51,150 bases of DNA from an uncultured Bacteroidia bacterium (GTDB lineage Bacteria > Bacteroidota > Bacteroidia > Bacteroidales > UBA932), in assembly GCA_902778855.1 (NCBI GenBank), contig CACYZM010000010.1, forward strand, positions 1-51,150, written 5' to 3'. This document shows, in pieces, positions 222-35,775 of this stretch. The position numbers were made by a program, and so were the translations under genes. The first letter of the stretch is position 1. Each line of letters starts with the position of its first letter. The notes under the pieces are model-generated. The model did no database searches. It was given only the letters and a program-made list of their open reading frames with translations, and was not told the origin of the DNA.

Positions 222-483
222 AAGCCCTGAGAGGGAAGGAACAATTCCGGAGCGAATTGGCGAAAAAGGGACGAGGGCGGGCCTGTGCAGGGAGCGGTGG
301 CCGTAGAGAGAGGGTTGCAGGGATTGTCCCTGCAGCCCTCTCGAGGCCATGACGGCGCTTTGTTCGACGACCGTTAGACTCGCTTTAGCGAGGCTAAAAG
401 GGAGAAGTTCGCCGTCAAGCTCCCGGTGCCGCTCCCTTTTTCGCCAGCCTGAGCGGAGGAATTGTTCCTTCCCGACAGGGCTT
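222..483 (+). repeat. Structured intergenic element A, copy 1 (candidate structured RNA)
   Basis: A 262-nt element closed by a long stem: 222-229 pairs with 476-483 and 233-248 with 458-473 (GGGAAGGAACAATTCC, perfect). An asymmetric internal loop follows (249-258 against 446-457). A second perfect 13-bp helix pairs 259-271 (GGCGAAAAAGGGA) with 433-445. Inside are a 16-bp hairpin (308-323 with 327-342, one G-U) and a second hairpin with base GACGGCG (351-357) / CGCCGTC (410-416) and apical arms 379-383 / 388-392. Copy 2 lies at 35513-35775. The strand is set by convention, since both copies point the same way. Transcription is not shown. Confidence 0.75.
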
Positions 484-621: not shown

Positions 622-705
622 GTCGAGCGGCGCAAAAGGCTTCCGCGAGCCGTTACCATCCCGGCGGGACATCCCCTAGTGAAGGCAAACCGAAAATCAC
701 AGAGC

Positions 706-740
706 GCCTGAATCGGCGAAATAGGGCACGAGACGGCCTG
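706..740 (+). repeat. Truncated fragment of element A
   Basis: The stretch reads GAATCGGCGAAATAGGG and then a diverged CACGAGACGGCCTG. It aligns with the 5' part of element A copy 2 (35547 onward, GAATTGGCGAAATAGGG then ACGTGAGTGGGCCTG). The matching 3' arms are absent, so this is a remnant or a partial insertion, joined almost directly to element B copy 1. Confidence 0.5.
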
Positions 741-755
741 CGACACGCTTTGCAG

Positions 756-838
756 GGCCATTTGGCCTCACGGAGCGTGGGGATGTGCCGGAAAAGGCCG
801 GTAAGCAGGGACGATACGCTCCGTGAATTTCGGGTTGC
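756..838 (+). repeat. Element B, copy 1
   Basis: The core is a perfect 10-bp hairpin, CACGGAGCGT (769-778) with ACGCTCCGTG (816-825). It is preceded by the palindromic GGCCATTTGGCC (756-767) and followed by GAATTTCGGGTTGC (825-838). The bases at 816-838 recur exactly, inverted, at 35348-35370, and the bases at 756-777 recur at 35420-35441. Weaker similarity continues to about 893 (GGCGGT, GAGxGTGAC blocks). Confidence 0.65.
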
Positions 839-905
839 CGCAAAGGGGCGGTAGGACGACGGCCGAGCGGCCGGTTGGCCGCTGAGAGTGACGGACTGCG
901 GCTTC

Positions 906-1067
906 GGCGGGCAAGGTCTCATTTGAGGCCCGACACCTTGCCCGCCACAATGGCCTCCCAAGGCTGTCTGGGGCAGATTGCCTGGGCAAGGTCCGCCGTC
1001 TGAAATGAGACCTTGCCCGGAGCGCCCCCAGGGGACCTTGCCCGAAACGCCCCCGCGGACCTTGCCC
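906..1067. repeat. Four-arm palindromic element D with 24-25 bp tandem tail (GGGCAAGGTC core)
   Basis: Four arms alternate: 909-924 (GGGCAAGGTCTCATTT), 935-943 (ACCTTGCCC), 984-992 (GGGCAAGGT) and 1003-1018 (AAATGAGACCTTGCCC). Arms 1 and 4 pair perfectly over 16 bases and arms 2 and 3 over 9. Alternatively arms 1-2 form a 12-bp hairpin (906-917 with 935-946) and arms 3-4 a 10-bp one. The motif GACCTTGCCC is then repeated in direct orientation at 1009, 1034 and 1058, ending nine bases before the helicase stop codon. Confidence 0.7.
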
Positions 1068-1076
1068 CGGAACGCC

Positions 1077-2492
1077 CTACTGAAAGAATTCGTCCTTGAA
1101 ATTGACGAAGTAGACCTTTTCGACGCCGCGGGTGATGGCGGTGTAGAGCCATTTGAGGTCGTCGAGGGTGGGCTCTTTCCAGAAGGGGTTGTCGATGAAG
1201 ACGCAGGGCCATTGGCCGCCTTGGGATTTGTGGCCGGTGATGGCGGTGGCGTATTTGATCTGAAGGGCGTTGTAGTAGGGATCTTCGCGGACTTTTTCGT
1301 AACGCTTGCGGGCGTTGCGGACGTCGGCGTAGTCTTCGTTGACGCCTTGGTAGAGAGCGCGTTGTTGCTCGGCGGAGAGAGAGGGCTGCTCGGAATCGAG
1401 CGTGTCGAGGACGATCTTGGCCTTGATCTCAACATCGTTATAGTCGGGGAAAGCCAGGACGGCGTCGGCGAAATGGAGGCCGTAGCGCTCTTCGTGGTGC
1501 GACAGACGCACGAGCTGCGCCACGTCGCCGTTGGCGATGAAATCGAGCTCGGGAACGTCTTCCAGGAACTGATAACAGTTCTTCACCACCATCAGCTTGT
1601 CGCCACGCGACAGCCGCTCCTCGCGATAGAGAACGGTGCCGCGAATGCCGGCATTGTAGCGATTGGCCCGCTTGTTCGAGCGGCAGAGTACCACGATGTC
1701 ATCGAGCCCGTAACGGCCCACGGCATCGCCGATCTTCTCGATCAGCTCGCCGCCGCCGATCCGCTCCACATCGTCGAACCCGGCCAGACAAAGCCGCGGC
1801 ACCTCCACCCGCCCTGCCTCGATCAGCCGACGGACAATCGTAGCGTTGGTCAGAATGCCCGACTCCGCCGCCTGACGGACAACCGTCGTCAGCTCGGCCG
1901 TCATCACCCGGCCATAGCGCGACAGATACCCCTCGTCGAGCGCCGGACTCCGGTCGAGTCCGATGGGCGGCAACTGGCCGCGGTCGCCGATCAGGATCAG
2001 CTTGTCATCGACGCCGGCGCGCACGAACTGCACCAGATCGTCGAGCAAATCGCCCGACCCGAAGAGTCCGCTGCCCGATGAATTCGTTTCGACAGAAATC
2101 AGCGAAGCCTCGTCGACAATGAAAAACGTATCCTTGGCCTTGTTGAAATTGAGCTGGAATTCCCCAACCCCGTCGCGGATCCCCTTCTGCCGATAAATAT
2201 GCTTGTGGATCGTATACGCCTTTTCGCCCGTGAAACCCGAAAGCACCTTCGCCGCCCGGCCGGTCGGGGCCAGAAGCACATAGCGGTAGTGCAGCTCCTT
2301 GAGCGTGCGGACGAACGCGGCGATGGCCGAGGTCTTGCCGGTGCCGGCATAGCCGCTCACCAACAACATATCGCAGGTCTCATACTGCACGGCGAACTGC
2401 CCGAGCGTGTCGAACAGACGCGCCTGACAGGGCGTTGGCTCGTACCCGAGATGTTGCCGCAACCGGTCGGCGAAGAACTCCGCAACGCCCAT
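1077..2492 (-). CDS. Dda/RecD-like SF1B DNA helicase
   Basis: An ATP-dependent DNA helicase of about 471 residues. Visible motifs: Walker A GYAGTGKT (47-54), Walker B DEAS (127-130), motif III GDRGQLPP (169-176), motif V AITGHKSQGG (from 417) and motif VI YTAITRG (450-456). The length and the lack of a long N-terminal region fit the compact Dda/UvrD_C_2 type better than full RecD2. The start is the ATG that overlaps the trkH stop by one base (TAATG); the frame stays open upstream, but that part lies inside trkH. It is last in the run surE-lpxB-dapF-HAMP gene-trkH-helicase, so it is probably co-transcribed. A repair or recombination role is inferred from the family. Confidence 0.85.
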   Translation of the reverse strand: MGVAEFFADRLRQHLGYEPTPCQARLFDTLGQFAVQYETCDMLLVSGYAGTGKTSAIAAFVRTLKELHYRYVLLAPTGRAAKVLSGFTGEKAYTIHKHIYRQKGIRDGVGEFQLNFNKAKDTFFIVDEASLISVETNSSGSGLFGSGDLLDDLVQFVRAGVDDKLILIGDRGQLPPIGLDRSPALDEGYLSRYGRVMTAELTTVVRQAAESGILTNATIVRRLIEAGRVEVPRLCLAGFDDVERIGGGELIEKIGDAVGRYGLDDIVVLCRSNKRANRYNAGIRGTVLYREERLSRGDKLMVVKNCYQFLEDVPELDFIANGDVAQLVRLSHHEERYGLHFADAVLAFPDYNDVEIKAKIVLDTLDSEQPSLSAEQQRALYQGVNEDYADVRNARKRYEKVREDPYYNALQIKYATAITGHKSQGGQWPCVFIDNPFWKEPTLDDLKWLYTAITRGVEKVYFVNFKDEFFQ

Positions 2493-5584: not shown

Positions 5585-6632
5585 AGATATCTTGGGCTAT
5601 GCGCTCTGCGACGCGGGCGTCGCCGAGCAGGGTTTTCAATTCGGTGTAGTCTTGTTGCAGTTTCTCCCGGACACCCGCGTCGAACAGGAGGCGTTCGAGA
5701 TGGCGGAACATTTCCGCGGCGGAGGCCTGGTCCTGCAACAGTTCCGCGACGGCCCCGCGGTCGAGACAGAGGTTGACCGGGCTGACGAAGCGCAGCTTCA
5801 CGGTCAGGCGGGCGATCCACCAGGTCAGGCGGCGGAAACCGTAGCAGACGACCTGGGGCGTGCCGAGCAGGGCGGCCTCGAGATTGGCCGTACCGGAGCA
5901 GATGACGGCGGCGGAGGCGCCGGCAAGCAGATCGTAGGTACGGCCGGGCAGCACTTCGATGCGGCTGTCGGCGGGAAGCCAGCGGCGGTAGTCCGCGACG
6001 GGAATCGAAGGCGCCGCGGCGATGAAGAGCCGGAAGCGGTCGAAGCGGGCGTCGGCGGCGAGCAGGCGCTCCAGCTCCGCGTAGCGGGGCATCAGGAAGC
6101 GCAGCTCGGAGGAACGGCTGCCGGGCAGCAGCACGATGCGGGCCCCGTCGATCTCCTGGAACGGCCATTGCGCCAGACACTCCTGCAGCGGATGCCCGAA
6201 ATAGCGGGGCTCCAGCCCCCGCGCCCGGAACCAGGCGGGTTCGAAGGGGAAGATGCAGTAGAGCACGTCCACGTCCCGCTTGAGCCGGCGCAGCCGGTGC
6301 CCGGCGTGGGCCCAGACCTTCGGCGCAATATAATAGAATACTTTCAAACCGTGGGCGTGGGCGAATCGGGCGATCCGCAGGTTGAAGCCCGGATAATCGA
6401 TCAGGATGACGGCGTCGGGCTGCCAGGCCAGCAGGTCTTTCTGACAGGCAGCCAGGTTTTTGAGCACCTGACCGGCCTTGCCCACGACTTCGAGGATGCC
6501 CATCACGGGCGTCATCGCTTCGCTCCCGCGGAAGCGGATCTCACAGCCGGGATCGCACGTGCGCAGCCCGCGCATCAGGTTCGATGCGTAGAGGTCGCCC
6601 GAGGCCTCGCCGGCTATGATATAGTATTTCAT
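5562..6632 (-). CDS. lpxB: Lipid-A-disaccharide synthase
   Basis: A GT19 glycosyltransferase that joins UDP-2,3-diacylglucosamine and lipid X to give the lipid A disaccharide on the inner membrane. The 356-residue protein starts MKYYIIAGEASGDLYASNLM, the conserved GEASGDL N-terminus of the family, and carries IDYPGFNLR and FPFEP motifs. The chosen ATG overlaps the surE stop by four bases (ATGA); the nine-codon upstream extension lies inside surE and is not family-like. Its 3' end overlaps dapF by 23 bases. Presence of lpxB indicates an outer membrane with lipid A. Confidence 0.95.
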   Translation of the reverse strand: MKYYIIAGEASGDLYASNLMRGLRTCDPGCEIRFRGSEAMTPVMGILEVVGKAGQVLKNLAACQKDLLAWQPDAVILIDYPGFNLRIARFAHAHGLKVFYYIAPKVWAHAGHRLRRLKRDVDVLYCIFPFEPAWFRARGLEPRYFGHPLQECLAQWPFQEIDGARIVLLPGSRSSELRFLMPRYAELERLLAADARFDRFRLFIAAAPSIPVADYRRWLPADSRIEVLPGRTYDLLAGASAAVICSGTANLEAALLGTPQVVCYGFRRLTWWIARLTVKLRFVSPVNLCLDRGAVAELLQDQASAAEMFRHLERLLFDAGVREKLQQDYTELKTLLGDARVAERIAQDIYGEIARI

Positions 6633-7438
6633 GGACAGTCGAAGTTCCACAATTGGCGCAGGCGCTCCATCTCTTCGTAGTCGGTAGTGTCGATGCGATG
6701 GGGAACGATGGAGACATAGCCGCTGTCCACCACGTGGTGGTCGGCGTCGGGGGCGCCGACCGCTTCCTGGTCTTCGAATTCGCCCACCATCCAGAAGTAG
6801 TGCCGGCCACGGAGGGTGACGCGGTGGTCGAACTCCTTGACCCAGCGGCCCGCGCCCTGGCGGGCCAGGCGGATGCCGCGGATCTGATCTTTCGGGAGAT
6901 CGGGGAAGTTGACGTTCAGGTAGACGTTGTTGCGCAGGCCGTCCTGCAGCACCCGGTCGAGGATTTGGCGGCCGTAATGGAGTACGCCCGAGAAGTCGGG
7001 ATCGTCGGCGTGGGTGTTGATGGAAAATCCGATGGAAGGGATGCCGTAGAGCGTGCCTTCCACCGTGGCGCCGAGCGTGCCGCTGTAGATCGAGGCGGCC
7101 GAGGCGTTGGATCCGTGGTTGATGCCCGAAACCAGCAGGTCGGGCAGCCGGCCTTCGTGGAGGAAGATGTTGATACCCAGCTTCGCGCAGTCGGCCGGCG
7201 TGGCCGTAAGCGTATAGACGCGAAGGGTGCCGAGCCCCTCCGCGGCGGATTCCACCACCGGCTTCTCGATGAACAAAGGTTTGTCGAGCGTCAGCGAGAC
7301 CGATTTGCCGGACTGCGGCTCGTAGGGCGCCACCACGGTCACGTTGCCGTATTCACGGAGCATCTGCGCCAGCACGTGGATTCCGCGGGCACGGAAGCCG
7401 TCGTCATTGGTTACCAGGATTTCGCGGGTCTCGCTCAT
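6629..7438 (-). CDS. surE: 5'/3'-nucleotidase SurE
   Basis: A cytoplasmic nucleoside monophosphate phosphatase of 269 residues. The metal-binding NDDG motif is at the N-terminus (ILVTNDDGFRARGIHVL), and SGINHGSNAS is the other active-site segment. The start is the ATG that places the beta-strand ILVTNDDG about eight residues in, as in other SurE proteins; the longer frame upstream runs through AT-rich intergenic DNA. It is the promoter-proximal gene of the minus-strand run to the helicase: a TATCTTTG -7 box is at the complement of 7457-7464. It overlaps lpxB by four bases. The surE-lpxB neighbourhood occurs in other Bacteroidales as far as I recall. Confidence 0.95.
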   Translation of the reverse strand: MSETREILVTNDDGFRARGIHVLAQMLREYGNVTVVAPYEPQSGKSVSLTLDKPLFIEKPVVESAAEGLGTLRVYTLTATPADCAKLGINIFLHEGRLPDLLVSGINHGSNASAASIYSGTLGATVEGTLYGIPSIGFSINTHADDPDFSGVLHYGRQILDRVLQDGLRNNVYLNVNFPDLPKDQIRGIRLARQGAGRWVKEFDHRVTLRGRHYFWMVGEFEDQEAVGAPDADHHVVDSGYVSIVPHRIDTTDYEEMERLRQLWNFDCP

Positions 7439-7505: not shown

Positions 7506-8537
<1,032 letters not shown>

Positions 8538-8619: not shown

Positions 8620-10239
8620 ATGAAACGCTTTTTCCTCCTCTTTCTGGTGCTGGCGCTCGCCGTAGCGTGCAGCCCGAAGACCACGCCCGCCGGCAAATCC
8701 GGCAAGGCGGCTTCCGATATCGTGATCCTCTACGACAACGACGTGCACTGCTCCGTGGACGGCTATGCCAAGATGGCCGCGCTCAAAGCCGAGAAGAAAG
8801 CCCAGACGCCCTATGTGACCGTCGTCTCCGCCGGCGACTACGTGCAGGGCGGCAGCATGGGCGCCGCCTCGAAGGGCGGATACATCGTGACCATCATGAA
8901 CGCCGTGGGCTACGACCTGGTAACCCTCGGCAACCACGAGTTCGACTATGCGATCCCCCGCCTGAAGGAGATCAGCAAAGAGCTCAAGGCCACGATCCTC
9001 TGCTGCAACCTCATCGACCTGAAAGCCGACGCCCGGATGTTCAAGCCCTACGAGATCGTCGACTACGGCGGCACCAAGGTCGCTTTCATCGGCGCAGCCA
9101 CGCCCTACAGCTTCAACTCCTCCACGCCGGCCTACTTCCAGGATGACAAAGGCAACTACGTCTACTCCCTGAGCGCCGACACCTACTACGACACCTTCCA
9201 GAACTTCATCAATGACGCCCGCAACCAGGGCGCCGACTATGTGGTGGCCCTCACCCACCTGGGCGACGACGTGAACTACGACCCGATCAACTCCCAGGAA
9301 CTGGCCCGCCAGACGGAAGGCCTCGACGTGATCCTCGACGGCCACTCCCACAGCCTGGTCCCGCAGCGCATCCTGACCAACAAGGCCGGCAAGTCCGTGC
9401 TCTACTCCCAGACCGGCGCCCACTTCGACAACATCGGCGTGATGACCATCAGCCCCAATGGCGAGATCAACCTGAGCCTGGTGTCCACGAAGGACTACAC
9501 GAAAGAAGACCCGCGCGTCCGCAGCGTGATCGACAAGCTGAAAGCCGAATACGCCGCGCAGGGCGCCCGCAAGATCGGTTATAACGAAGTGATGCTTCCC
9601 GCCAAGAACGCCGAAGGCGACTGGCTCGTCCGCGCCGGCGAGACCTCGCTCGGCGACCTGTGCGCCGACGCCTTCCGCGTCTGCCTCGGCACCGACATCG
9701 CCATCGTCGGCGGCGGTTCGCTCCGCAAGGACCTCCCGGCCGGCGACGTCCGCTTCGATGACATTTTCAATGTCTTCCCGTTCAACAACAACGCCGCGGT
9801 GGCCACCCTCACCGGCCAGGAGATTCTCGACGCGCTGGAATTCGGCGTGGCCGCCTACCCCACCGACTTCGGCGGCTTCCCGCACGTGTCAGGCATGACC
9901 TTCGAGTTCGATCCTTCGGTCGAAAGCCCCGTGGTCTATGACGTCAACAAGGCGTTCGTCCGCATCAACGCCGGCGAGCGGCGGGTGCGCAACGTCAAGG
10001 TGTACAATCCGGAAACCCAGCTTTACGAGCGGATCGATCCCGCCAAGGAATATACCGTGGGCGGCTCGACCTATATGCTCAAAGACGCCGGTGACGGCTA
10101 CGAGCTCCTCAAGGGCAAAGGCCGCGACACGGGCGTCGTCGACCTGGACATCCTGGAGAAGTACATCGTCGAAAAACTCGGCGGCCGCATCTCCGCCGCC
10201 CAGTACGGCGAGTCGCAGGATCGCCTCATCAAACGGTAA
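8620..10239 (+). CDS. UshA/CpdB-like 5'-nucleotidase lipoprotein
   Basis: A 539-residue secreted metallophosphoesterase. The N-terminal MKRFFLLFLVLALAVAC is a lipoprotein signal with the lipidated Cys at 17. The calcineurin-like domain has DNDVH (39-43), GNHEFD (104-109) and GHSHS (near 240), the metal-ligand motifs of the family; the C-terminal half (from about 340, with NVFPFNN and GGSxY) matches the 5'-nucleotidase substrate-recognition domain. Family members cleave nucleotides or UDP-sugars outside the cytoplasm to salvage nucleosides and phosphate; the exact substrate is not readable. The ATG at 8620 gives a proper signal peptide, unlike an in-frame TTG at 8599. It converges with trmD, only 3 bases between the stops. 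Confidence 0.9.
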   Translation: MKRFFLLFLVLALAVACSPKTTPAGKSGKAASDIVILYDNDVHCSVDGYAKMAALKAEKKAQTPYVTVVSAGDYVQGGSMGAASKGGYIVTIMNAVGYDLVTLGNHEFDYAIPRLKEISKELKATILCCNLIDLKADARMFKPYEIVDYGGTKVAFIGAATPYSFNSSTPAYFQDDKGNYVYSLSADTYYDTFQNFINDARNQGADYVVALTHLGDDVNYDPINSQELARQTEGLDVILDGHSHSLVPQRILTNKAGKSVLYSQTGAHFDNIGVMTISPNGEINLSLVSTKDYTKEDPRVRSVIDKLKAEYAAQGARKIGYNEVMLPAKNAEGDWLVRAGETSLGDLCADAFRVCLGTDIAIVGGGSLRKDLPAGDVRFDDIFNVFPFNNNAAVATLTGQEILDALEFGVAAYPTDFGGFPHVSGMTFEFDPSVESPVVYDVNKAFVRINAGERRVRNVKVYNPETQLYERIDPAKEYTVGGSTYMLKDAGDGYELLKGKGRDTGVVDLDILEKYIVEKLGGRISAAQYGESQDRLIKR

Positions 10240-10242
10240 ACG

Positions 10243-10917
10243 CTATTTCAGCAATTCAGGACGAAGCGCCCGGGTTCTCTCGAGCGCTTTTTCGTCCTGC
10301 CAGGCGGCGATCTTCTTGGGGTCGCCGGAAAGAAGGACTTCGGGAACCTTCCAGCCGTTGAATTCGGCGGGACGGGTGTAGACGGGCGGCGCGAGGAGGC
10401 CGTCCTGGAAGGAATCGGACAGGGCGGACGTCTCGTCACCCAGCGCGCCGGGCAGGAGCCGGACCACGGCGTCCGTGATGATGGCGGCGGGCAGTTCGCC
10501 GCCGCTGAGCACGTAGTCGCCCACCGTGATTTCGCGCGTGATCAGATGCTCGCGGATGCGGTGGTCGACACCCTTGTAGTGACCGCAGAGAATCATCAGG
10601 TTTTCCTTGCAGGAGAGCTCGTTGGCGAGGGGCTGCGTCAGCTGTTCGCCGTCGGGAGAGGTGAAGATGATCTCGTCGTACGTGCGCTCGGCCTTGAGCT
10701 TTTCCATCAGGTTGAAAACCGGTTCGATCATCATGACCATGCCGGCATCGCCGCCGAAACTGTAGTCATCGGTCTGGCGGTAGCGGCCTTTGCCGTAATC
10801 GCGGATGTTGTGGACGTGGATTTCGACCAGGCCCTTGTCTTGGGCCCGTTTCACGATGGAGTAGTTCAGCGGGCTTTCCAGAAGCTCCGGAACGACGGTC
10901 AGGATATCTATTCTCAT
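10243..10917 (-). CDS. trmD: tRNA (guanine37-N1)-methyltransferase
   Basis: Makes m1G37 next to the anticodon, preventing +1 frameshifts. The protein of 224 residues begins [17 protein letters not shown] and contains the SAM-binding trefoil-knot segments [12 protein letters not shown] and [12 protein letters not shown], both diagnostic. The start is the ATG before RIDIL; an upstream extension runs through the AT-rich promoter region. A TAAATTTG box (complement of 10926-10933) lies only 8 bases upstream of this ATG, so the leader would be very short or absent. It is monocistronic here, without the usual rpsP-rimM-rplS neighbours, which is common in Bacteroidota. Confidence 0.96.
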
Positions 10918-10925
10918 ACGGACGG

Positions 10926-10933
10926 CAAATTTA
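10926..10933 (-). promoter_or_regulatory. Possible -7 box for trmD
   Basis: The complement reads TAAATTTG, matching TAnnTTTG, but it ends 8 bases before the ATG, so the mRNA would be nearly leaderless. It may be fortuitous. Confidence 0.3.
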
Positions 10934-10955
10934 GCGATTATTTGTAAAAAAAGAC

Positions 10956-10963
10956 TATATTTG
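10956..10963 (+). promoter_or_regulatory. Putative -7 box for the DUF349-yidC run
   Basis: TATATTTG matches TAnnTTTG and lies 25 bases before the ATG at 10989, in the AT-rich spacer shared with divergent trmD. Confidence 0.5.
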
Positions 10964-10988
10964 CAGGTTACATAAAAACTGTAAAACA

Positions 10989-12857
10989 ATGAGTGAAGAT
11001 CTTAACCCGGTTGTTCCCGCTGAGGAGCAGCCTGTAGAAATCCAGGAAACTGCAACTGTCGAAGCCCCCGTCGAAGAGACCGCCGAACCGGTTGCCGAAT
11101 CCGATCCCGCAGAGGAGACCCCCAAAAATGATTTTTCGAACCTGGGCCTGAAGGAAATCGTGGATGCCTTCAAGGAACTGCTCGAAGGCGAAAACATGCA
11201 GCAGCTCTACAAGCACGCCGAAGCGCTGAAAGCGGCGTTCTACAAGAACCTGCGCAAGGAAAAGATCGCCTCGGGCGTGATGCAGCCCGCCGAGACGGCC
11301 GCCCCCGAGGCGCCCGCCACCGGCGAGGAAGCCGCTCCGGAAGAAGCCGCCGAAGAACCGGTCTCCTTCAATCCCTTCGCCGAGATCGAGCGCGGATTCA
11401 AGGATCTTTACAGCCAGTATAAAACCCGTCGCGCCGCCTTCACGCAGGAGCAGGAAAAGAACAAGGAAGAGAACTACCAGGAGAAACTTGCCGTCATCGA
11501 AGACCTCAAGGCCCTGGTCGAGGCCAGCGAAGACCTCAAGGAGACCTTCCCCAAGTTCCGCGAGATCCAGAACCGCTGGCGCGCCATCGGCCCCGTGCCG
11601 CAGGCCCGCGTGAAAGATCTCTACGACACGTACCAGCACTACGTGGAAATGTTCTATGACTACGTGAAGATCAACAAGGAGTTCCGCGACCTCGACTTCA
11701 AGAAGAACCTCGAAGCCAAGGAGAAACTCTGCCTCCGCGCCGAAGCCCTCGCCGACGAGGAAGACGTGGTGGGCGCATTCCGCACCCTGCAGAAACTCCA
11801 CGAACAGTGGAAGGAACTCGGCCCCGTGAGCAAGGAATTCCGCGAATCCATCTGGGAGCGCTTCCGCGCCGCCACGGCCGTGATCAACAAGAAGCACCAG
11901 GGCTTCTTCGAGGCCCAGAAGGGCAACCAGAAGGAGAACTTCGAGGCCAAGTCGGCCCTCTGCGAGAAAGTCGAGGAAATCGCCGCCACCGAAGTCACCG
12001 ACGCCAGCGCCTGGAACCGCCTGACCAAAGAGATTGAAAACATCCAGAAGGAATGGCGCAAGATCGGCTTCGCCTCCAAGAAGGACAACCAGAAAGTCTA
12101 CGACCGCTTCCGCGCCGCCTGCGACGCCTTCTTCAACAAGAAGCGCGAATACTACGCCGGTTTCAAGAACCAGATGCAGGACAACCTCGCCCGCAAGATC
12201 GAACTCTGCGAGAAGGCCGAGGCCCTGAAGGATTCCACCGAGTGGAAGAAAGCCACCGACGAGATCATCGAACTCCAGAAACAGTGGAAAGAGATCGGCC
12301 CCGTCTCCCGCAAGAAATCCGAGCAGGTGTGGAAACGCTTCCGCGGCGCCTGCGACGAATTCTTCAGCAACCGCGACAAGCACAGCGGCGGCCAGGACAG
12401 CGAACAGGTCGAGAACCTCGCCAAGAAGCGCGCCCTGATCGACGAGATCCGCGAATTCGTGGTGGAAGACCGCGACGAAGCCCGCGAAGCCCTGCGCGCC
12501 TTCCAGGAGCGCTGGAACGCCATCGGTTTCGTCCCCTTCAAGGAGAAGACCCGCATCCAGGACGCTTTCCGCAAGGTGATGAACGAGAAGTTCGCGGAAT
12601 TCCGCGACGGCGGCCGCAACTACGCGTCGAAGGCCGAGCGCGCCATCCGCACCGAGCGTGACCGCCTTGTCCAGAAGTTCATGAAGAAAGAGCAGGAAAT
12701 CGCCACGTGGGAGAACAACATGGGCTTCTTCTCCCAGTCTAAGAACGCCGAGGCGCTCCTCCAGGAACTGAACAAGAAGATCGACATCGCCCGTCAGGAA
12801 CTGGCCGACCTGGAAGAGACCATCAAGGCCTACGACCGGGAACATTCGCAGGAGTAA
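10989..12857 (+). CDS. DUF349 repeat coiled-coil protein
   Basis: A 622-residue acidic, helical protein with five DUF349-type repeats. Each carries a W-x(3)-IG or LG motif followed by a helix: [36 protein letters not shown] and ERWNAIGFV. The first ~130 residues are low-complexity, rich in Glu, Ala and Pro, and the repeats are separated by long charged helices. There is no signal peptide or membrane helix, so it is cytoplasmic. DUF349 proteins are conserved across Bacteroidota, with no biochemical role I can state. It starts a plus-strand run with yidC 12 bases downstream, which might hint at a translation- or membrane-related role; that is speculation. Confidence 0.85.
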
Positions 12858-35347: not shown

Positions 35348-35441
35348 GCAACCCGAAATTCACGGAGCGTGGTCTCCCCATTCCTGGGCCCTCGCTGGCC
35401 CCTTCTCCACGCTCCGTGCGGCCATTTGGCCTCACGGAGCG
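35348..35441 (-). repeat. Element B, copy 2
   Basis: Inverted relative to copy 1. CACGGAGCGT (35361-35370) pairs with ACGCTCCGTG (35409-35418). The 23 bases at 35348-35370 are the exact complement of 816-838. The palindrome GGCCATTTGGCC with CTCACGGAGCG (35420-35441) repeats copy 1 exactly. The apical loop sequence differs between copies, but in both it contains a small GGCC-type hairpin. Confidence 0.65.
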
Positions 35442-35512: not shown

Positions 35513-35775
35513 GGGAAGCCACAGGATGGAAGGGATAATTTCGGAGCGAATTGGCGAAATAGGGACGTGAGTGGGCCTGTGCAGGGAGCGGTGGGCGTAG
35601 AGAGGGGGCCGCAGGGGTTCCTGTGGCCCCCTCGGGCCATGACGGCGCTTTGTTCGACGAACGTTCCGGGCCCTTGCGGCCCGGATAAGGAGGAGTTCGC
35701 CGTCAAGCTCCCGATGCCGCTCCCTATTTCGCCAGCCTGAGCGGAGGAATTATCCCTTCCCTCCTTTGGATTCCC
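35513..35775 (+). repeat. Structured intergenic element A, copy 2 (candidate structured RNA)
   Basis: A 263-nt element with the same fold as copy 1. The outer stem of about 28 positions pairs 35513-35540 with 35748-35775 (three mismatches) using a different sequence. The internal-loop segments (CGGAGCGAATT and AGCCTGAGCGGA) are identical to copy 1. The second helix pairs GGCGAAATAGGGA (35553-35565) with TCCCTATTTCGCC (35721-35733). Hairpin 1 pairs 35602-35615 with 35620-35633. Hairpin 2 has the same base (35641-35647 / 35698-35704) but a new GC-rich apical stem (CCGGGCC / GGCCCGG, 35666-35672 / 35678-35684). Confidence 0.75.

What the first reader, a model, noticed from the sequence alone, without database searches (positions are those of the whole stretch)
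222..483. Element A: a ~262-nt intergenic element with compensatory changes in every helix
The two copies (222-483 and 35513-35775) have the same fold but differ in the paired bases. The outer arm reads AAGCCCTG..GGGAAGGAACAATTCC in copy 1 and GGGAAGCC..GGAAGGGATAATT in copy 2, and each pairs with its own 3' arm. The second helix is GGCGAAAAAGGGA/TCCCTTTTTCGCC versus GGCGAAATAGGGA/TCCCTATTTCGCC, an A-T to T-A swap on both sides. The apical stem of hairpin 2 changes from CTCGC/GCGAG to CCGGGCC/GGCCCGG. This is what selection on structure looks like and fits no RNA family I recognise. Only two copies are available, and palindrome-correction mechanisms can mimic covariation.
Basis: partly seen in the sequence, partly recalled or inferred. 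Interest (0 to 1): 0.85.

Follow-up and report, generated by a model that had tools for sequence, protein, structure and literature searches.

The report
Spreading hairpin repeat with conserved core
The 262-base intergenic element is one copy of a scattered, non-coding, strongly folded repeat that I found only in bacteria of the phylum Bacteroidota; its arms differ between copies yet usually still pair, around an internal loop that hardly changes, and what it does and how it spreads are unknown.

Summary
Both window copies fold far better than shuffles, and the genome holds 14 long copies. Among 15 copies, 17 of 66 consensus pairs changed on both sides; most inner pairs never vary, so 'every helix' is wrong here. 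Across other genera and families the helix around the core is also rewritten yet paired, flanking a nearly invariant asymmetric internal loop, GUYYGACGAMCGUUAG / CUAAAAGGRGGAGUU. No Rfam family matches. A core pattern in 84,980 species genomes gave 83 stretches, all Bacteroidota; viral, phage and plasmid collections gave none.

At the two sites examined the copies look like lineage-specific insertions; at one, convergent genes overlap or nearly touch in 11 of 16 genomes, so the arms came with the element. No target duplication, no orientation preference relative to genes and no partner protein were found. In two close relatives three elements keep their order while neighbouring genes differ.

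Best reading: a non-autonomous mobile structured repeat, handled as a folded single strand by an unidentified factor. RNA or DNA is unresolved. An attC-like role in exchanging defence or toxin genes is a lead, not a result.

The parts
222..483 (+). Element A copy 1, complete (AAGCCC...GGGCTT); strand = sense of the conserved core
35513..35775 (+). Element A copy 2 (83% identical to copy 1 over 35525-35761) with different outer arms; lies between the terminator-like hairpin after rpmE and the next gene
222..248 (+). Left outer arm of copy 1
458..483 (+). Right outer arm of copy 1, pairs with 222-248
299..348 (+). Hairpin 1 (GGCC...GGCC), variable between copies
346..421 (+). Conserved core hairpin of copy 1 (model R1 346-421, model R2 349-421 with 80 bits)
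351..357 (+). 5' strand of the core stem, GACGGCG; rewritten with compensation in other genera and families
410..416 (+). 3' strand of the core stem, CGCCGTC
362..377 (+). 5' side of the conserved internal loop and following stem, GTTCGACGACCGTTAG
394..409 (+). 3' side of the same, CTAAAAGGGAGAAGTT
35636..35709 (+). Conserved core hairpin of copy 2 (GTTCC/GGATAAGG variant)
678..845 (+). Element B, a second palindromic repeat; 7 matches in the own genome, 6 of them within about 200 bp of an element A copy
35348..35431 (-). Partial element B beside element A copy 2

Best explanation
A non-autonomous mobile element: a rod-like imperfect hairpin of roughly 200-260 nt that becomes inserted between genes, brings its own palindromic arms, and is recognised by a trans-acting factor as a folded single strand through a nearly invariant internal loop in its core hairpin. 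Shown: scattered multicopy state; sites without it in relatives; arms that come with the element at the rpe site; helices rewritten but paired; a nearly fixed asymmetric loop; only Bacteroidota among the species genomes scanned. Inferred: that it moves actively, that the folded single strand is what is recognised, and that a protein supplied in trans does it. Whether the strand is RNA or DNA is undecided.
For: Own genome: 14 long copies and shorter pieces. In G004, 7 of 12 core hits share one score and six of those seven end within about 60 nt of a contig end, as recent near-identical repeats would. rpmE site: in the 7 relatives where one search showed both flanking genes side by side, the gap from stop to start is 8-178 nt without the core motif, against 652 nt in the window. 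rpe site: in 11 of 16 fetched genomes the two convergent genes overlap (10) or lie 12 nt apart (1); G024 has the element with long arms between them, and G008 and G029 have it beside another neighbour. Covariation: 21 genus cores; 15 cores of several genera and families. Copy-specific arms: the own right arm is the best of 13 partners for 10 of 13 distinct type-B left arms, and L013's arms, unlike those of other copies, pair better than 1000 of 1000 shuffles. Elements lie between convergent genes five times as often as between divergent ones (25 to 5 of 64).
Against: No target-site duplication: longest flank repeat 3.44 nt on average for own flanks, 3.50 for mismatched ones, 9 copies. No mobilising enzyme identified: PF01797 is not found in G217, which has 9 copies, and is found in G003 and G013, which gave no core hit. 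19 of 40 genus genomes gave no core hit. Covariation in palindromes can also come from hairpin-templated correction. Movement was inferred from comparison, never observed, and insertion points were not defined to the base because other repeats sit in the same gaps.
Confidence: 0.55

Rival explanations
1. A structured RNA (stand-alone small RNA or untranslated-region element) whose genes have been duplicated; the internal loop binds a protein or ligand as RNA.
For: Covariation around a nearly fixed asymmetric loop that can be drawn with tandem G.A pairs. Inside helices wobble positions are 19 G-U to 7 A-C in 17 diverse representatives (p 0.03), 31 to 18 in 32 (p 0.09), 28 to 11 in 27 distant copies, 72 to 49 in all 93; RNase P RNA of the genus gives 63 to 37 by the same test, so this measure does not set the element apart from an RNA.
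Against: A Bacteroidota-type promoter motif (recalled: TTTG, 16-24 nt, TAnnTTTG) lies upstream of 1 of 13 own copies. No preference for gene strand: 18 same, 16 opposite in tandem contexts. In helices called on both strands G-U and A-C are 15:12 (type A) and 8:9 (type B) against 22:6 for RNase P RNA. The better fold of the core-sense strand (89 of 94 copies) is mostly base composition. 11 of 16 genomes lack it at the rpe site.
Confidence: 0.25
2. An attC-like folded recombination site: elements serve as joints at which genes, often toxin-antitoxin or defence genes, are inserted and exchanged.
For: G263: three model hits and one looser pattern match, all on the strand of the neighbouring genes and within 7 kb, separate type I restriction genes, DUF2130 with TacA and a GNAT protein, an HTH protein with HipA, and two further genes of which the one scanned has no Pfam match. 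G217: elements flank a PDC-M12A/B pair and PDC-S01. G004 and G034 (94-96% identical in the shared blocks) keep three elements in order, but between the second and third one has a GDSL lipase and the other an LPD3-domain gene, and left of the first the genes also differ; homology breaks at or inside the elements.
Against: 0 of 8 genomes have an integron integrase over the curated cut-off. Many copies stand alone beside ordinary genes; 140 neighbour proteins hit 137 Pfam families. Homologous recombination between repeats explains the swaps; the first G034 element is truncated, the third G004 element carries an insert in its right arm, and a 144-bp stretch is shared inside the swapped segment. 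Arms stay paired, which frequent crossover in the core would destroy. In G217 the elements mostly oppose the genes. No background set was run for defence genes.
Confidence: 0.12
3. Selectively neutral palindromic repeats whose arms are kept alike by hairpin-templated (quasipalindrome) correction.
For: Strand-symmetric mismatches within the genus. Palindromic repeats of several kinds crowd the same sites.
Against: Such correction should erase the asymmetric internal loop, which is nearly invariant across several families.
Confidence: 0.08

Closest known systems
REP/BIME and REPIN palindromic repeats (moved by RAYT)
   Same: Scattered intergenic palindromes, mosaics with other repeats, bias to gene 3' ends; folded single strand as likely recognised form
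   Different: REPs are 20-40 bp and GTAG- or CGTC-tagged (title and start of the abstract of PMC3733652 in the listing); this is about 200-260 nt with a fixed internal loop, and G217 has 9 copies without a PF01797 hit
MITEs, including BrickBuilt of Porphyromonas gingivalis (PMC4596501, passages seen)
   Same: Non-coding, some tens of copies, inverted-repeat ends, predicted long stem-loops, Bacteroidota host
   Different: Arms not shared between copies and no target duplication here; BrickBuilt has terminal repeats like those of insertion sequences and internal 23-nt tandem repeats
Integron attC sites
   Same: Structure kept more than sequence; can lie between exchanged genes
   Different: Longer than attC, no integron integrase over the cut-off, and the conserved GTTAG lies inside the hairpin rather than at its foot (attC layout and length recalled)
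Candidate palindromic RNAs of gut Bacteroidetes (PMC8040213, outline and section 8 read)
   Same: Palindromic, conserved, Bacteroidetes
   Different: The four named there are 80-132 bp; the sequences are in supplements that I could not read, so identity with one of the 250 palindromic candidates is not excluded

Membership tests
Any Rfam 15 family | Match at or above the family's gathering score | tested here: not met
   0 in the window at gathering; in 10 related loci searched by E-value, 7 matches in all, each far below gathering
MITE | Terminal inverted repeats shared between copies | tested here: not met
   Arms are inverted within a copy; subsets of copies share arms, but arms are rewritten between subtypes and L013's are unlike the rest
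MITE | Target-site duplication | tested here: not met
   9 copies: own 3.44 nt, mismatched 3.50 nt
MITE | Ends shared with an autonomous transposon | not tested
   No dedicated search; an integrase-family gene (L274) and a RAYT-like ORF seen by eye (L283) lie within a few kb of elements
REP/REPIN with RAYT | Y1 transposase encoded in carrier genomes | tested here: inconclusive
   PF01797 in 7 of 8 genomes, not in G217 (9 copies), present in G003 and G013 (no core hit)
REP/REPIN with RAYT | 20-40 bp palindrome | tested here: not met
   Alignment of 15 copies, about 240-290 nt each
Integron attC | Integron integrase (TIGR02249) in the genome | tested here: not met
   0 of 8 genomes over the cut-off
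Structured non-coding RNA | Covariation beyond background | tested here: met
   Covariation score 0 of 500 shuffles in both alignments; 'further pair types' reached by 24 of 500; shuffles do not keep relatedness
Structured non-coding RNA | It is transcribed | not testable with these tools
   No expression data held

The most novel reading that the evidence does not exclude
The element is the folded single-strand site of an undescribed gene-exchange system of Bacteroidota, analogous to integrons but without an integron integrase: elements spread by insertion and then serve as joints at which toxin-antitoxin and defence genes are swapped, recognised through the nearly invariant internal loop.
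Probability: 0.12. Interest if true: 0.88.

Novelty: new variant of a known kind. Interest (0 to 1): 0.6.

Why it matters
It adds a family of structured repeats, for which I found no description, to Bacteroidota, a major group of gut and rumen bacteria. Arms that are rewritten freely yet usually stay paired, around a loop that hardly changes, give a sharp handle: the loop should bind something, and that can be tested directly. If the gene differences between elements prove more than chance recombination between repeats, it would also bear on how defence and toxin genes are shuffled in this phylum.

Tried and rejected
Insertion into pre-existing palindromes (arms would be host sequence): rejected at the rpe site, where in 11 of 16 genomes the convergent genes overlap or lie 12 nt apart; not tested elsewhere. 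Integron: no integrase over the cut-off in 8 genomes. RAYT as necessary mobiliser: not supported. Phage or plasmid origin: the core pattern finds nothing in viral contigs and copy 1 nothing in the plasmid and phage collections; the core was not searched in the last two. Known Rfam RNA: none. Fold energy of one strand as proof of RNA: dropped after shuffles showed mostly composition. G-U against A-C as proof: calibrated with RNase P RNA and found weak. Algoriphagus L148: set aside as a chance match because I saw no flanking helix. G848 (L252), a weak hit, reads like coding sequence and is probably chance. Literature: the listings showed no description of this element; most subscription papers and all supplements are out of reach.

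Rows dropped: one search gave 34 core candidates, 31 went into (TTAG type) into and model R1. One search gave 28 of 31 picks; 24 went into and 15 into, model R2 and (four with long apical inserts and nine short-loop cores left out because the automatic alignment shifted their register, so covariation was not counted for those families). One search used 80 of the 83 genome-contig loci plus fetched regions and counted orientation for 64 of 107 elements. One search served only to scan neighbour proteins in a batch and held 140 of 157. One search printed 36 of the 83 stretches. In one search, 22 copies were collapsed to 13 arms, and its three poor ranks are kept (two probably from a misplaced right end). 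One search scored 29 of 31 genomes.

Full report
What is there. The window is a whole 51,150-base contig of a 2.4 Mb genome (G000, 79 contigs). Element A occupies 222-483 and 35513-35775. Both fold far better than 200 shuffles (z -12.3 and -8.6). The own genome gives 14 matches of about 200 nt or more, one cut by a contig end and one with its core loop deleted, and shorter pieces; L015 and L016 keep both outer arms and lack most of the inside.

How it varies. In 15 copies 17 of 66 consensus pairs changed on both sides and stayed paired: outer arms, hairpin 1, apical stem and one pair of the second helix; most inner pairs never vary. In other genera and families the helix next to the core is rewritten too. 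R1 was built from 21 genus cores: covariation score 0.148 against 0.045 shuffled, 0 of 500; 7 of 19 pairs with double changes. R2 was built from 15 cores of several genera and families: 0.273 against 0.075, 0 of 500; 8 of 17 pairs with double changes, 4 of them in the outer helix; one of the five measures, further pair types, was reached by 24 of 500. With the partner slid by one to three columns the score is at most 0.051 and 0.099. The shuffles do not keep relatedness, so these are not probabilities. Between the helices lies a nearly invariant asymmetric loop, GUYYGACGAMCGUUAG opposite CUAAAAGGRGGAGUU (variants exist, as in G113 and L045), which can be drawn with tandem G.A pairs; that drawing is mine. 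In G263, G888, G899, G909 and G658 the UUAG...CUAA part is missing and a short loop closes the motif; these are weak model hits (E about 1e-5 to 1e-3) judged by eye.

Where it is found. R1 hits 21 of 40 genus genomes and 5 of 393 order genomes including the own one. R2 hits 13 of 119 family genomes including the own one, of which G848 looks like chance, and 2 of 395 phylum genomes including the own one. Samples over 40 genomes used stricter filters, so these are lower bounds. A degenerate core pattern over one genome for each of 84,980 species found 83 stretches, all with Bacteroidota titles, in 40 assemblies by my count of accession prefixes; I read 36 of the 83, of which Algoriphagus looks like a chance match. 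The pattern fits the UUAG type only. It finds nothing in IMG/VR, and copy 1 finds nothing in plasmids or phages.

Inserted, with its arms. At the copy 2 site the stop-to-start gap is 8-178 nt without the core motif in the 7 relatives where both genes are side by side, against 652 nt in the window, which also holds a piece of element B. G061 has an element in the opposite sense just after its rpmE terminator. At the 3' end of a gene that reads like rpe (name by eye), the convergent neighbour overlaps it in 10 of 16 fetched genomes and lies 12 nt away in one; G024 carries the element with long arms, and other repeats, in a 391-nt gap; G027 carries another palindromic repeat; G008 and G029 carry the element beside another neighbour; G028 has another neighbour gene. 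So at this site the palindromic arms are not a pre-existing target. Nine copies show no target duplication. Arms are mostly specific to the copy.

Context. Of 107 elements examined, 64 had a called gene within 1.5 kb on both sides: 25 convergent, 5 divergent, 34 tandem (18 same, 16 opposite) (naive gene calls, so noisy). A promoter motif (recalled) is upstream of 1 of 13 own copies. The 140 neighbour proteins scanned hit 137 Pfam families, the commonest in 3 proteins; PADLOC hits include PDC-S01 in 3 and AriA in 2. In element-dense places the genes between elements include type I restriction genes, DUF2130, TacA with a GNAT protein, HipA with an HTH protein, a PDC-M12 pair and PDC-S01. G004 and G034 share blocks at 94-96% identity and three elements in the same order, the first truncated in G034 and the third enlarged in G004, while the genes between the second and third and left of the first differ; homology breaks at or inside the elements, apart from a shared 144-bp stretch. 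No background set was tested, so enrichment is not claimed, and homologous recombination between repeats would suffice.

RNA or DNA. The core-sense strand folds better in 89 of 94 copies, but shuffles show most of the same bias. In helices called on both strands G-U and A-C cells are 15:12 and 8:9 against 22:6 for RNase P RNA. At single positions inside helices the element gives 72:49 over 93 copies, 31:18 over 32 representatives, 19:7 over 17 and 28:11 over 27 distant copies, RNase P 63:37. The tests do not decide.

Mobiliser. Integron integrase: 0 of 8 genomes over the cut-off. PF01797: 7 of 8, not in G217 with 9 copies, present in G003 and G013 without a core hit. No partner was found; reverse transcriptases and other families were not searched.

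Verdict. A family of scattered structured repeats for which I found no description, most likely a non-autonomous mobile element recognised as a folded single strand; a structured RNA remains possible, and a role as an exchange site for genes is an open lead.

Noticed in passing
window 678-845 and 35348-35431: Element B, another palindromic repeat (GGCAAACCGAAAATCACAGAGCG...CGCTCCGTGAATTTCGGGTTGCC); 7 own-genome matches, four of them 5-14 bp 3' of an element A copy in the same orientation.
   Followed up: partly
window about 504-590: Repeat C (TTGGACGCTCAGTCC...), twice 3' of copy 1 and also 3' of the element A copy in L006.
   Followed up: partly
window 900-1080: Several copies of a GGACCTTGCCC/CAAGGTC-type sequence in direct and inverted order.
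   Followed up: no
L321 (G027, rpe site): A different palindromic repeat (GGCTTGTTC...GAACAAGCC with GGGTGGGATATTGC inside) where G024 has the element.
   Followed up: no
L091, L092, L142, L176, L181, L208: In these distant carriers the element is followed by a hairpin like GTTACTTTTT...AAAAAGTAAC; the two may form one composite unit.
   Followed up: partly
L262 (G217:C50) 7738-7996: Two elements in tandem 218 bp apart, same orientation.
   Followed up: no
L283 (G658) 9417-10094: An ORF that reads like a RAYT/Y1 transposase (by eye) about 4 kb from the element.
   Followed up: no
L285 (G000:C17) 5884-7032 and L260 (G263) 10156-11253: A Fic protein with DUF4172 lies next to an element in both genomes.
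   Followed up: no
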